A stretch of 64,000 nucleotides of DNA from an uncultured Elusimicrobiales bacterium (GTDB lineage: Bacteria > Elusimicrobiota > Elusimicrobia > Elusimicrobiales > Elusimicrobiaceae). Of this stretch, positions 50,474-54,266 are shown in pieces. Numbering within the stretch: the stretch's first letter is position 1; every line of letters begins with the position of its first letter. A program made the position numbers and the translations under genes. The stretch is from the NCBI GenBank assembly GCA_944324675.1, contig CALUXE010000004.1, forward strand, positions 62,001-126,000. The letters run 5' to 3'. The notes under the pieces are model-generated. The model was not told the origin of the DNA, made no database searches, and saw only the letters and a program-made list of their open reading frames with translations.

Positions 50474-50839
50474 TTATAAAAACAATCCGCTTGGCGTAAA
50501 AGCGTTTTTTATATGTTCGAGCCTGTCGCCCGTTATGGCTATTATATCAAACAAAAGCGCGTTGTAAGACGGATTTTCTTGCTTGATATAAGCTACGGCC
50601 GCCTTCGCTATTTTTTGCTGTTTGCTTTTTGTAACCGCGGCGACGGGCCCGCCGAAAGCTTCGGAGGAGCGCTGTTTTACCTCTACAAATATGAGAGTTC
50701 CGCCTTTTTGGGCTATGATATCCACTTCGCCCAAAGGGCAGAGATAATTCCTCTTTAAAATTTTATAGCCGTTGTCTTGAAGATATTTCGCGGCGCGGTC
50801 TTCGGCTTTGTCGCCCTGCCTGCGCAGAAAACTAAACAT
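50474..50839 (-). CDS. YraN family protein (UPF0102, endonuclease-like)
   Basis: 121 residues from the ATG at 50839, which has GGAGAAC upstream; an ATG 16 codons earlier is not supported. The family signature is clear: GDKAEDRAAKYLQDNGYKILKRNYLCPLGEVDIIAQKGGTLIFVEVKQRSS in several short blocks (about 9-60), including the E...D...EVK residues of a restriction-endonuclease-like fold. Its activity in the cell is uncertain; it is usually found next to rnhB, as here. The start overlaps the end of rnhB by 8 bases. Confidence 0.93.
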   Translation of the reverse strand: MFSFLRRQGDKAEDRAAKYLQDNGYKILKRNYLCPLGEVDIIAQKGGTLIFVEVKQRSSEAFGGPVAAVTKSKQQKIAKAAVAYIKQENPSYNALLFDIIAITGDRLEHIKNAFTPSGLFL

Positions 50840-51482
50840 TTTTGTTCTCCGCAAACAACCCGCCGTACATCGATAACAAAGGCTCAAAAGTCATTCTGTG
50901 CTGAGGGCAGGGACCGTATTCCTTGACGGAAGCTATATGGCTTTTTGTGCCGTAGCCTTTATGTCCGGAAAAATCGTAGAGGGGAAATTTTTCGTCCAAA
51001 ACATCCATAAATCTGTCGCGCGAGACTTTCGCTATTATGCTGGCCGCCGCCACGCAAAGGGATTTTGCGTCGCCCCCTATGATGCTTTTTTGTTGGTGGT
51101 GCACAAAAGGAATAAGCCGGTTGCCGTCTACAAGAACGAGGGCGTTTTCCTTTTCGAAAAAGGCCAGGGCGCGGCGCATGGCGATAAAAGTTGCCTGGAG
51201 AATATTGTGTTTGTCTATTTCCGCGGCTGAAGCGTAGCCCGTACGCCATAATATAGGCAGTGTGGTAAGTTCCTCAAAAATTTTCTCGCGTTTGGCAGGG
51301 GAAAGTTTTTTGCTGTCGTTTATTTTCGCCATTACAGGGTGGGAGTAAAGCTCCGGCGGTATATAGCACGCCGCCGCGGTAACGGGCCCGGCCAAAGGGC
51401 CGCGTCCGGCTTCGTCTACGCCGATTATTTTTGAGAATGGAAACTCTTGGGATATTTGAATGTCAAATTCGCTCAAACTCAT
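50832..51482 (-). CDS. rnhB: Ribonuclease HII
   Basis: 216 residues. It cuts at single ribonucleotides in DNA and at RNA:DNA hybrids. Seen: GVDEAGRGPLAGPVTAAAC (about 21-39, first metal-binding pair), the LVDGNRL aspartate (about 117-123), and AKVSRDRFMDVLD (about 150-162). The C-terminal stretch HKGYGTKSH matches the family. Full length, cytoplasmic. The yraN gene overlaps its end. Together with the clamp-motif RNase HI-like protein at 1.9 kb the organism has two RNase H types. Confidence 0.96.
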   Translation of the reverse strand: MSLSEFDIQISQEFPFSKIIGVDEAGRGPLAGPVTAAACYIPPELYSHPVMAKINDSKKLSPAKREKIFEELTTLPILWRTGYASAAEIDKHNILQATFIAMRRALAFFEKENALVLVDGNRLIPFVHHQQKSIIGGDAKSLCVAAASIIAKVSRDRFMDVLDEKFPLYDFSGHKGYGTKSHIASVKEYGPCPQHRMTFEPLLSMYGGLFAENKNV

Positions 51483-51888: not shown

Positions 51889-51965
51889 TTGGCTTTTGCG
51901 TTTTGTTTTTTTATTGACCGTCGCTGTTGTTCAAACGGAAAATATCTTCAAAACGCAAAAGCCAA
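51889..51965. repeat. Perfect 17-bp inverted repeat with 43-base spacer
   Basis: TTGGCTTTTGCGTTTTG (51889-51905) is exactly complementary to CAAAACGCAAAAGCCAA (51949-51965). The spacer is 43 bases. No T-run follows on either side as in a standard terminator, and it lies within the 215-base gap before the lipoprotein gene at 52056. It may be a structured RNA leader, a recombination relic or a binding site. Confidence 0.6.
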
Positions 51966-52055
51966 TCTTGTTGTAAAAGCGGAAAAGGAAGGAATCCTCT
52001 TGATTTTTTGCTTTATGTTATATTAGATATTAGAGTACTTCAGGAGGATAGAAAA

Positions 52056-52412
52056 ATGAAAAGGAACCTGGTCTTTATAAGTGTGCTTTTGGGATGTATG
52101 GTAATTGGTGTGGGCTGCGTTTCTTCTGGAGAGAAGAAAGCCGAAAAGCTTGCCGGCTTGACCTTGGATAATGAAGAAATTTATAAATGTTCGTCCGATT
52201 CCGATTGCGTGTCTGTATTGAGGGATTGTTGTCTATGCGACGGCAAGGTGGCGATAAATAAGAAATACGCCAAAGCGTTTAATCAATCCAAGAGCGAACG
52301 CTGCGCTTTTGTTCCCTGCACTTTACAGATGTGCTATGTGGATATAACTCCAAAGTGTGTTGAAGGCAAATGCGGAGGGGATTTAATTGAGCCGCCCGCT
52401 GTAATGCCTTAG
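52056..52412 (+). CDS. Cysteine-rich lipoprotein (paralogue of the protein at 52995)
   Basis: 118 residues from the ATG at 52056, which has AGGAGG 8 bases upstream; the frame is open further upstream (from 51927) but with no supporting site. A lipoprotein signal ends at GVGC (cysteine at about 22). The mature part holds ten further cysteines in a pattern C-x3-D-x-DCVSV...CC...NKKYAKAF...C...C...C...CVEGKC. The minus-strand gene at 52995-53486 shares this pattern. The cysteines probably form disulphides at the cell surface. No function known. A strong terminator follows by 40 bases. Confidence 0.75.
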   Translation: MKRNLVFISVLLGCMVIGVGCVSSGEKKAEKLAGLTLDNEEIYKCSSDSDCVSVLRDCCLCDGKVAINKKYAKAFNQSKSERCAFVPCTLQMCYVDITPKCVEGKCGGDLIEPPAVMP

Positions 52413-52452
52413 GGAGTATAAAAAGCATTTTGAATTGAAATAAAATAAAAAC

Positions 52453-52499
52453 TAACGCGGCTTTTAAGTATAAAAAAGGCCGCGTTATTTGTTTGTTTT
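52453..52499 (+). terminator. Terminator after the cysteine-rich lipoprotein gene
   Basis: Long stem TAACGCGG-CTTTT / AAAAAGG-CCGCGTTA (one bulge), loop AAGTATA, followed by TTTGTTTGTTTTT. Confidence 0.85.
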
Positions 52500-52759
52500 T
52501 TTGTCTTTTTGCTTTTCTTAATATTTTTATCGCTGATTTATTTTTCTGTTAGATAGGGGATATCTTTTTGCTTAATCCAAATTGACTTAAGGTGTTTTTG
52601 CCGCTTAAAGGGGGGAAAGCGGACAGTCCAAATTGGGGCAAATGAGAGTCGGGAAAAAGGCTTATGTAATAGGGCGTAGTTTTGCGCTCCGACTGATGGA
52701 AATATAAAAACTCTGGCTAAAAAAGACAGTAATATAGTAAAATATATAAAGATTTGAAA
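52500..52759. other. Non-coding stretch before tRNA-Arg
   Basis: No convincing ORF. It contains TCCAAATT at 52576 and 52627, the second within a GGACAGTCCAAATTGGGG block (52621-52638). Similar fragments recur near 60.3-60.6 kb. A weak tRNA promoter (TAAAAT near 52739) may lie at the end. Confidence 0.3.
52572..52644. repeat. Candidate fragment of a dispersed repeat (TCCAAATT-type)
   Basis: Two TCCAAATT words 51 bases apart, one flanked by GGACAG and GGGG. The same word and GGGGGACAG occur at 60297 and 60595. Such words resemble repeats associated with REP-type transposases in other genomes, but this is memory-based and no transposase is present. Confidence 0.25.
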
Positions 52760-52834
52760 GCGCCCATAGCTCAATGGATAGAGCACCAGCCTGCGGAGCT
52801 GGGGATACAAGTTCGATTCCTGTTGGGCGCACCA
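52760..52834 (+). tRNA. tRNA-Arg, anticodon GCG
   Basis: 75-nt cloverleaf: acceptor GCGCCCA / TGGGCGC, D-arm GCTCAATGGATAGAGC carrying the arginine identity base A20, anticodon stem CCAGC / GCTGG with loop CTGCGGA, discriminator A, encoded CCA. The T-stem ACAAG / CCTGT has one A-C mismatch. Most bacteria read CGU/CGC with an ACG anticodon edited to ICG; here the gene already has G34. Confidence 0.9.
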
Positions 52835-52841
52835 TTTGAAA

Positions 52842-52869
52842 GACTCTTCGAAAGCGAAGAGCCTTTTTT
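52842..52869 (+). terminator. Terminator of tRNA-Arg
   Basis: GACTCTTCG / CGAAGAGCC with an AAAG loop, followed by TTTTTT, 8 bases after the tRNA. Confidence 0.9.
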
Positions 52870-52939
52870 ATCTCAATATTCCTGCTTATAATTTCTCCGT
52901 CATAGATTTTTATGCCAATCCTTTCCAACTGTAAGCGTA

Positions 52940-52979
52940 AAAAACGCTTGCGCCTTTATGACCGAGCGCAAGCGTTTTT
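52940..52979. terminator. Terminator downstream of the cysteine-rich anchored protein
   Basis: Fourteen-bp perfect stem AAAAACGCTTGCGC / GCGCAAGCGTTTTT with a 12-base loop, lying 16 bases past the stop codon of the minus-strand gene at 52995. The A/T flanks make it usable in both directions. Confidence 0.9.
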
Positions 52980-52994
52980 CAGCTTAAAAGATTT

Positions 52995-53486
52995 TTACCC
53001 TTGAAATTCCGGCGTATTAAATATGCTTTGAAGGCATTTTCCGCTGACGCAGGCCGCCTTGGCACCGCCGAAATAGCTCCTGGGGCATTTTGATGCCTCG
53101 GGGCATTGTTCCGGTTCGCCCGAAACCCGCTTATATTCTTTTATCAATTCCTGCTCGTATTGTTTGTTTACGAAGTAGGGGGCATAGGCTTCTTTGCAGC
53201 AGCTGGGGAATACAGCTACGCAATCCTCGTCCGTTTCGCAGCCGGAGAATAAATCCTGAATGTCGCTCATGCTGTTGCTTTTTGCAGCGTCTTCTTCCGT
53301 ATCGTTAAGGCCCGATGTTGTTTGGGGGCCGTCACCTTCCCGCGGAAGGATGGTTTCTTCTACGATTACTTCTTCCGCCGATATTTCCTGAGGAAGATAC
53401 TCTTTGGGCCCGTTCATCGCTTTCCAGGATACCACTATTACGGCTAAAGCCGCCAAAATTATTATTATTGATTTTATATTTTTCAT
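52995..53486 (-). CDS. Cysteine-rich membrane-anchored protein (paralogue of the lipoprotein at 52056)
   Basis: 163 residues. A single hydrophobic segment (about 5-22, SIIIILAALAVIVVSW) without a lipobox suggests a signal anchor. An acidic linker (about 25-78) leads to a domain with eight cysteines: GCETDEDCVAV, FPSCC, NKQYEQEL, QCPEASKC, AACVSGKC. The order and spacing match the lipoprotein at 52056 (C-x3-D-x-DCV-x-V, CC, NK-x-Y, final CV-x-GKC), so the two share a domain but use different anchors. It is convergent with tRNA-Arg and 12 bases after xth on the same strand. Function unknown. Confidence 0.72.
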   Translation of the reverse strand: MKNIKSIIIILAALAVIVVSWKAMNGPKEYLPQEISAEEVIVEETILPREGDGPQTTSGLNDTEEDAAKSNSMSDIQDLFSGCETDEDCVAVFPSCCKEAYAPYFVNKQYEQELIKEYKRVSGEPEQCPEASKCPRSYFGGAKAACVSGKCLQSIFNTPEFQG

Positions 53487-53498
53487 TTATAACTCCTT

Positions 53499-54266
53499 TT
53501 ATATTTCTATGTCTATCCCCACAGGCGCATGGTCTGAGCCGGGCACATCACTTAGTATATAAGCATTTTTTATAAGTTTTGAGGCCTTCTCGTCAACCAT
53601 AAAATAATCCAGCCGCCAGCCTACGTTTCTGCTCCTGGCGGCGGTTTTATAGTCCCACCACGTGTACTGCTTACCTTGAATATTGAACATTCTGAAGGTA
53701 TCAACCAAGCCTTCGCTGAAGAATTTATCAAGCCAAGCGCGCTCCTGCGGGAGGAAGCCCGTAGTATTTTGATTTTCTTTGGGGTGTTCCAAATCAATTT
53801 CCTTATGAGCGGTATTGACGTCGCCGCAGGTTATTACGTATTTCCTTTTTGCAAGTTCTTTGCACATTTTTAAAAACGCCGCATAGAAGCGGAGTTTATA
53901 TTCCACCCTGTGTTCGCCTTGTCCGCCGTTGGGAAAGTAGACCGTTAGGAAATAGAATTTATCGTATTCCAAGCAAAGCAGTCTGCCTTCCGCGTCGAAC
54001 TCCTCGCTGTCCAAAGAGGTTGACACCGACAGCGGTTCTTCTTTGGTATAAACGCCCACGCCGCTGTATCCTTTGCGCTGAGGGGTGGAAAAGTAGGAGT
54101 AATACCCCGGGATATTTTTTAACCCGTCGGATAATTGTTCCGGCCAAGCTTTTGTTTCCTGCAGGCCGATTATATCGGGGTTGGTTTTTATCAACCAATC
54201 CTTAAAGCCCTTCTTTTCTACGGCTCTAAGTCCGTTGACGTTCCACGAAAGGAAAATTCTCTTCAT
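53499..54266 (-). CDS. xth: Exodeoxyribonuclease III / AP endonuclease
   Basis: 255 residues, an EEP-fold DNA-repair enzyme that cuts at abasic sites and removes 3'-blocking groups. Landmarks: SWNVNGLRA (about 7-15), IGLQETKAW (about 33-41, metal-binding glutamate), VTCGDVNTAHKEIDL (about 144-158), DYFMVDE (about 220) and GSDHAPVG (about 243-250, catalytic aspartate-histidine pair). Full length. It is divergent from metK across 34 bases that contain a TATAAT. The following gene on the same strand, the cysteine-rich anchored protein, is 12 bases away. Confidence 0.96.
   Translation of the reverse strand: MKRIFLSWNVNGLRAVEKKGFKDWLIKTNPDIIGLQETKAWPEQLSDGLKNIPGYYSYFSTPQRKGYSGVGVYTKEEPLSVSTSLDSEEFDAEGRLLCLEYDKFYFLTVYFPNGGQGEHRVEYKLRFYAAFLKMCKELAKRKYVITCGDVNTAHKEIDLEHPKENQNTTGFLPQERAWLDKFFSEGLVDTFRMFNIQGKQYTWWDYKTAARSRNVGWRLDYFMVDEKASKLIKNAYILSDVPGSDHAPVGIDIEI

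What the first reader, a model, noticed from the sequence alone, without database searches (positions are those of the whole stretch)
52056..53486. Two cysteine-rich anchored paralogues flanking a tRNA gene
The lipoprotein at 52056 and the minus-strand protein at 52995 share a domain with C-x3-D-x-DCV-x-V, CC, NK-x-Y and a final CV-x-GKC, but one is lipid-anchored and the other has a membrane helix. tRNA-Arg, a frequent insertion site, lies between them. An undescribed surface-protein family is possible.
Basis: partly seen in the sequence, partly recalled or inferred. Interest (0 to 1): 0.5.

Follow-up and report, generated by a model that had tools for sequence, protein, structure and literature searches.

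The report
Unnamed cysteine-rich envelope protein family
Two small cysteine-rich proteins beside a tRNA gene belong to an uncatalogued family of membrane-anchored bacterial proteins; their place beside the tRNA looks like coincidence, but how these bacteria bond so many cysteines is an open, testable puzzle.

Summary
Both genes are real and related. They share a cysteine-rich domain (profile E 4e-10) and are under purifying selection (dN/dS 0.085-0.164). The first motif is C-x2-D, not C-x3-D. They belong to a family without a Pfam, NCBIfam, PHROGs or PDB match at the thresholds tried, found in 80 of 340 genomes of the phylum (Elusimicrobiota), including 66 of sister genus g6. Four subgroups hold 10, 8, 8 and 6 cysteines (97 of 99 distinct domains even; 7 more, all 8) and keep characteristic chromosomal sites: before rpsJ or beside rnhB (A, with D), beside xth-metK (B), between secA and lnt (C). 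The pair is therefore old, not a local duplication. The tRNA-Arg is an insertion site in sister genome G001 (21.9-kb restriction-modification island), but neither gene is its cargo. Most likely: envelope-anchored, disulphide-stapled modules, perhaps assisting export. Puzzle: VKOR was found in 0 of 18 genomes of the genus and 0 of 61 of g6, DSBA over cut-off rarely. Surface exposure and function are untested.

The parts
52056..52412 (+). P0001, group A lipoprotein, 118 aa; signal peptide, predicted lipidated Cys21, cysteine-rich domain with 10 Cys
   Evidence: ribosome-binding site aggagg at 52042-52047 read directly; Cys21 invariant in A3; dN/dS 0.087 and 0.104 against G008 and G001
52188..52373 (+). 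cysteine-rich domain of P0001, residues 45-106 (C45, C51, C58, C59, C61, C83, C88, C93, C101, C106)
   Evidence: model pLDDT block means 79-95 over residues 41-110, strands 51-55, 64-68, 97-102, 105-110 and helix 69-83
52438..52502 (+). terminator-like inverted repeat followed by a T run, after P0001
   Evidence: repeat I1, 79% complementary, 9-nt gap; not listed by the terminator scan
52760..52834 (+). tRNA-Arg (gcg)
   Evidence: ARAGORN
52844..52861 (+). terminator-like hairpin after the tRNA
52940..52979 (.). perfect 14-bp inverted repeat, 12 bases between its arms, terminator-like, between the tRNA and P0002
   Evidence: repeat I6; not listed by the terminator scan
52995..53486 (-). P0002, group B membrane-anchored protein, 163 aa, 8 Cys
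   Evidence: begins 12 bases after the stop of the xth-type gene, same strand; dN/dS 0.085, 0.164 and 0.096 against G008, G001 and G017
53415..53477 (-). predicted N-terminal helix of P0002, residues 4-24; a lipobox-like cysteine lies at its end in 3 of 6 group B rows
53034..53240 (-). cysteine-rich domain of P0002, residues 83-151
53499..54266 (-). xth-type exonuclease/endonuclease gene directly upstream of P0002, its conserved neighbour
   Evidence: PF03372; synteny
50832..51482 (-). rnhB (RNase HII), conserved neighbour of P0001 in G001, G008 and G010
   Evidence: PF01351; synteny

Best explanation
The two proteins are old paralogues of one undescribed family of small envelope proteins of Elusimicrobiaceae. 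Each has an N-terminal export signal that serves as an anchor (lipid on P0001, an uncleaved helix on P0002), a linker, and one compact domain predicted as two strands, a helix and two strands, held by several disulphides and standing outside the inner membrane. Shown by computation: homology, purifying selection, anchoring signals, even cysteine numbers, conserved chromosomal sites. Inferred: that the cysteines form disulphides, and that the domain is a rigid, protease-resistant binding module. My preferred role, at low confidence (about 0.25), is an accessory of the export and lipoprotein-maturation line, since one subgroup is encoded between secA and lnt. The site beside tRNA-Arg is a coincidence of two separate gene neighbourhoods.
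For: Homology A-B E 4e-10, A-C 1.3e-7, B-C 1.2e-6. Same order of strands and helix in both models, though the P0002 model used an alignment whose other 28 rows are groups A and D. Cysteine counts: A 10 (53 of 54), B 8 (5 of 6, the sixth cut by a contig end), C 8 (24 of 24), D 6 (12 of 12), and 8 in each of 7 further group C proteins that the motif had missed; steps of two fit disulphides better than metal sites. dN/dS 0.085-0.164. Group C lies between secA and lnt-prfB in 28 of 28 loci that I took from the hits (66 genomes of g6 matched there): 21 seen by my motif script, 7 by placing the profile hit in the gap (families). Group B beside xth-metK in 6 of 6 loci, the window included (5 directly, 1 about 1.8 kb away). 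Group A before rpsJ in 25 of 28 loci, beside rnhB in the other 3. B and D are each one side of a well-supported branch (98/91, 98/90).
Against: No function was tested. In the window's genus VKOR was found in 0 of 18 genomes, DsbB in 0 of the 16 searched, DsbD_TM in 1 of 18, DSBA over cut-off in 2 of 18; in g6 VKOR in 0 of 61 and DSBA over cut-off in 1 of 61; DsbB was not searched in g6 and DsbD_TM in only 1 g6 genome. So no recognised route to disulphides in most of these genomes, while 16 of 16 genomes of the same order but another family have a DSBA match. The one DSBA-like ORF here carries CPYG, not CxxC. The secA-lnt link holds for group C only; in the window's genus secA runs straight into lnt in 9 of 11 loci read, the other 2 not reaching secA. 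Operon position does not prove joint function: group A sits among translation genes without any implied role there. Counts include many near relatives. Seven group C proteins have Asn where the motif has its first Asp.
Confidence: 0.6

Rival explanations
1. The cysteines bind metal (zinc, iron or copper) as thiolates: an envelope metal-buffering or sensing lipoprotein family.
For: Disulphide-forming enzymes mostly not recognised; a CC-x-C cluster in group A.
Against: Even cysteine numbers that differ by two between subgroups; group D lacks the cluster but keeps the six-cysteine core; no histidine among the invariant columns of A3-A6.
Confidence: 0.15
2. Host- or protist-facing surface lipoproteins, for example protease-inhibitor-like knots that survive gut proteases; tandem arrays would reflect diversification.
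For: Tandem arrays of two to four copies in many g6 loci; two of 28 record titles point to gut or droppings (L059, L066), a gut habitat being otherwise recalled; small disulphide-rich domain; a haemadin hit at E 0.002 in 1 of 14 members, cut-off not shown.
Against: Cysteine framework strongly conserved and selection purifying; 13 of 14 members do not match haemadin at E 1; the sites are held across genomes.
Confidence: 0.2
3. Cargo of an integrative element at tRNA-Arg.
For: A 21.9-kb element with integrase, HipA with a helix-turn-helix partner, type I restriction-modification and GmrSD sits at this tRNA in G001, bounded by a 46-bp copy of the tRNA 3' half.
Against: Both orthologues lie outside that element; no second tRNA-end copy in the window (30-mer, up to 6 mismatches); no match for P0001 in plasmids or phages or for P0002 in plasmids, none for groups A, B and C in viral contigs; the genes keep their chromosomal neighbours.
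Confidence: 0.03
4. Convergent cysteine patterns rather than homology.
For: The pairwise score is reached by 106 of 5000 shuffles if C and D are held in place.
Against: Profile-profile E 4e-10 over 72 columns; same predicted order of elements, although the second model is not independent.
Confidence: 0.05

Closest known systems
WAP four-disulphide core (PF00095)
   Same: C-x2-D-x2-C followed by CC recalls the WAP signature (recalled from memory); weak hit E 0.21 in 1 of 11 members
   Different: 6 to 10 cysteines, a predicted central helix; only a chance-level profile match
Haemadin (PF09065) and late nodulin (PF07127)
   Same: small cysteine-rich secreted domains (recalled); weak hits E 0.002 in 1 of 14 members and E 0.093 in P0002
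   Different: 13 of 14 members do not match haemadin at E 1; nodulin 13.5 bits against a cut-off of 30.4
Bacterial lipoproteins in general
   Same: signal peptide and lipobox-like cysteine in groups A and D and in 3 of 6 group B rows
   Different: the domain has no described relative found here; P0002 and group C are anchored by a helix instead

Membership tests
WAP four-disulphide core (PF00095) | convincing profile match | tested here: not met
   best E 0.21 in 1 of 11 members of A2; none for P0001 or P0002 at E 10
WAP four-disulphide core (PF00095) | eight cysteines in four disulphides (recalled) | tested here: not met
   P0001 has 10; family ranges 6, 8, 10; pairing itself not testable here
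Late nodulin (PF07127) | profile match at the curated cut-off | tested here: not met
   13.5 bits against 30.4
Haemadin (PF09065) | profile match across members | tested here: inconclusive
   1 of 14 members at E 0.002, cut-off not shown in that table
Bacterial lipoprotein (P0001) | N-terminal hydrophobic signal with conserved cysteine | tested here: met
   Cys21 invariant in 60 of 60 rows, starts chosen by script; the -3 residue is Gly here, so the lipobox is not canonical; no cleavage test
Integrative-element cargo at tRNA-Arg | gene lies between two copies of the tRNA end | tested here: not met
   single copy in the window; in G001 both genes lie outside the element
The new family (groups A-D) | profile similarity between groups | tested here: met
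   A-B, A-C, B-C E 4e-10 to 1.2e-6; D was aligned with A in A3 but not tested on its own
The new family (groups A-D) | shared core of six cysteines | tested here: inconclusive
   six invariant cysteines in the A, B, D rows of A4 (C83, C89, C96, C128, C146, C151 of P0002); group C has Pro where the others have the first Cys of the CC pair

The most novel reading that the evidence does not exclude
The domain is a working part of an unrecognised thiol-disulphide system: an anchored cysteine carrier that supplies or stores oxidising equivalents for exported proteins in bacteria where VKOR was not found and DSBA only rarely, which would explain its fixed place between secA and lnt in one genus.
Probability: 0.06. 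Interest if true: 0.75.

Novelty: new variant of a known kind. Interest (0 to 1): 0.4.

Why it matters
It gives a name-ready, uncurated domain family carried by all 66 genomes of sister genus g6 that one search lists (no g6 genome is among the 20 unmatched rows shown; 240 unmatched rows are not shown). Its paired cysteines, in a genus where VKOR was found in 0 of 61 genomes and DSBA over its cut-off in 1 of 61, make a concrete test of how, or whether, these bacteria oxidise exported proteins. It also shows that neighbouring paralogues beside a tRNA can be old and unrelated to the mobile DNA that uses the tRNA.

Tried and rejected
Local duplication: rejected, B and D are each one side of a supported branch and subgroup sites differ. 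Element cargo: rejected (above). Fold match: Foldseek on the P0001 model gave 7 hits, best E 6.2; VIA-align gave none at Z 2 or more for either model, over 26 and 99 chains; this is a second look at few chains and does not prove a new fold. Disulphide map: not resolvable. The alignments place Cys128 and Cys134 of P0002 differently, and no model coordinates were in the script box. Relatives outside the phylum: none by tblastn for P0001 in plasmids and phages and for P0002 in plasmids; for four other members in plasmids, two searches found nothing and two found 2 records each at E 3-4, which I set aside; none in viral contigs. The one genome-contig scan uses two short patterns from group A, so distant relatives in other phyla remain untested. 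Of 5 matches outside the order (G180, G183, G206, G213, G303), 4 were fetched and read and G303 was not. Tree: few columns, long branches, 23 of 80 inner branches unresolved; A and C each need two label changes. In the genus-wide lnt search, 11 of 18 loci were read. Papers: Elusimicrobia with lipoprotein and cysteine-rich, 1 unrelated paper; Elusimicrobi with disulfide bond and DsbA, 0; Avelusimicrobium, 2; Elusimicrobiaceae with comparative genomics and gut, 14; oxidative folding terms, 87 holding two or more terms, 10 listed. Of all these I saw listings and starts of abstracts only, except one on clostridial disulphide enzymes (PMC12453122), seen as full abstract and outline.

Full report
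Observation. The window lies in contig 4 of a 1.4-Mb genome in 17 contigs (G000, 99.74% complete). The two ORFs, the tRNA-Arg and most motifs are as described, with one correction: the first motif is C-x2-D-x-D-C. Ribosome-binding sites precede both starts (read). Terminator-like repeats follow P0001 (52438-52502), the tRNA (52844-52861) and P0002 (52940-52979). The scan found 5 terminator-like sites against 2.6 expected in shuffles, and lists only the one after the tRNA among these three, so they are suggestive only. I read the three genes as three transcription units; P0002 begins 12 bases after the xth-type gene and is probably transcribed with it (inference).

Relatedness. BLASTP gives 25% identity over 77 aa, E 2e-4. 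With cysteines fixed, 7 of 5000 shuffles reach the real score; with C and D fixed, 106 of 5000; with nothing fixed, 0 of 5000. Group profiles settle it: A against B E 4e-10, A against C 1.3e-7, B against C 1.2e-6. AlphaFold models give the same order of elements, strand, strand, helix, strand, strand, in both domains. Block means are 79-95 over residues 41-110 of P0001 and 56-97 over residues 81-150 of P0002; overall means are 75.8 and 72.5. The P0002 model used rows of groups A and D for its alignment, so it is not independent.

Extent. A profile of 11 varied members finds 80 of 340 genomes of the phylum at E 0.01: 7 of 18 in the window's genus, 66 in sister genus g6, and 7 others. No g6 genome is among the 20 unmatched rows shown there, which run from the window's genus outward; 240 unmatched rows are not shown. 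A scan of the GTDB contigs found 28 loci, 22 with titles naming Elusimicrobi- or Avelusimicrobium taxa and 6 titled only uncultured bacterium. Single-contig genome G018 of the same family lacks it; by size I take that to be Elusimicrobium minutum, from memory only.

Subgroups and places (unless said). A: lipoproteins with CC-x-C-x-G. They lie before rpsJ in 25 of 28 loci (EF-G or EF-Tu seen upstream in 17 of these 25; the other 8 end at a contig edge) and beside rnhB in 3 of 28, often in tandem and with D in g6. B: beside xth-metK in the window and 5 other loci, one of them about 1.8 kb away. C: helix-anchored, between secA and lnt-prfB in 28 of 28 loci that I chose from the hits; 21 were seen by my motif script and 7 by placing the profile hit, and these 7 have Asn for the first Asp of the motif. 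In the window's genus secA is followed directly by lnt in 9 of 11 loci read; the other 2 do not reach secA. D: six cysteines, beside A in the arrays. B and D are each one side of a branch with support 98/91 and 98/90; A and C need two changes each.

Cysteines. 97 of 99 distinct domains picked by motif hold an even number; the exceptions are a sequence cut by a contig end (7) and a distant one (11). Seven further group C proteins outside that motif all hold 8. The rows are related, so the independent evidence is a handful of lineages: 10, 8, 8, 6, and distant ones with 8, 8, 10 and 11. That favours disulphides. Against it, in the window's genus VKOR was found in 0 of 18 genomes, DsbB in 0 of 16 searched, DsbD_TM in 1 of 18, DSBA in 5 of 18 at E 0.001 and 2 of 18 over the cut-off. 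In g6, VKOR was found in 0 of 61, DSBA in 8 of 61 at E 0.001 and 1 of 61 over the cut-off; DsbB was not searched in g6 and DsbD_TM in 1 g6 genome only (none). By contrast all 16 same-order genomes of another family have a DSBA match. Of the 14 control genomes, VKOR rang in 3, DsbB in 6, DsbD_TM in 10 and DSBA in 8. The own DSBA-like ORF carries CPYG where an oxidase would have CxxC (motif knowledge recalled). Unknown oxidases remain possible.

tRNA-Arg. In G001 the two orthologues stand 23.7 kb apart. Between them lies a stretch bounded by the tRNA (C2:126459-126544) and an exact 46-bp copy of its 3' half (C2:104550-104595), holding an integrase, HipA with a helix-turn-helix partner, HsdM, HsdS, HsdR and GmrSD. 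The tRNA lies in the opposite orientation there compared with the window. In G008 the contig ends 93 bases past the tRNA, and the P0002 orthologue lies on another contig beside 6.5 kb without a blastn match in the window. So the site takes up DNA in at least one sister, but neither gene is cargo.

Mechanism. Shown by computation: family, anchors, selection, sites, even cysteines. Inferred: disulphide-stapled envelope domain; binding or structural module; possible help to export or lipoprotein maturation from the secA-lnt position of group C. Function remains untested; my confidence of 0.6 covers the structural reading, about 0.25 the export role.

Noticed in passing
L044 and L045 (sister genome G001, C2:104550-126544): A 21.9-kb integrative element at tRNA-Arg with integrase, HipA and helix-turn-helix, type I restriction-modification and GmrSD, bounded by a 46-bp copy of the tRNA 3' half
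   Followed up: yes
L163 (sister genome G002, C16:51927-60489): A 24-base copy of the tRNA-Arg end (96%) about 8.5 kb past the tRNA, perhaps a second element at the same site
   Followed up: no
L057 6473-8895 and L044 5112-5582: Exported-looking ankyrin-repeat proteins between the P0001 orthologue and tRNA-Arg in G008, and a shorter one in G001; none seen at this place in the window
   Followed up: partly
window 51889-51965: Perfect 17-bp inverted repeat with 43 bases between its arms, upstream of P0001
   Followed up: no
L209 846-1787 (own genome, C4:24345-25286): Exported-looking DSBA-like ORF (22.2 bits against a cut-off of 25.6) with CPYG in place of CxxC
   Followed up: partly
L115-L122 and L171-L190; compare L191-L201: In sister genus g6 a family gene sits between secA and lnt; in the window's genus the two genes are contiguous where both are seen, and lnt has a longer N-terminal reading frame in several genomes
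   Followed up: partly
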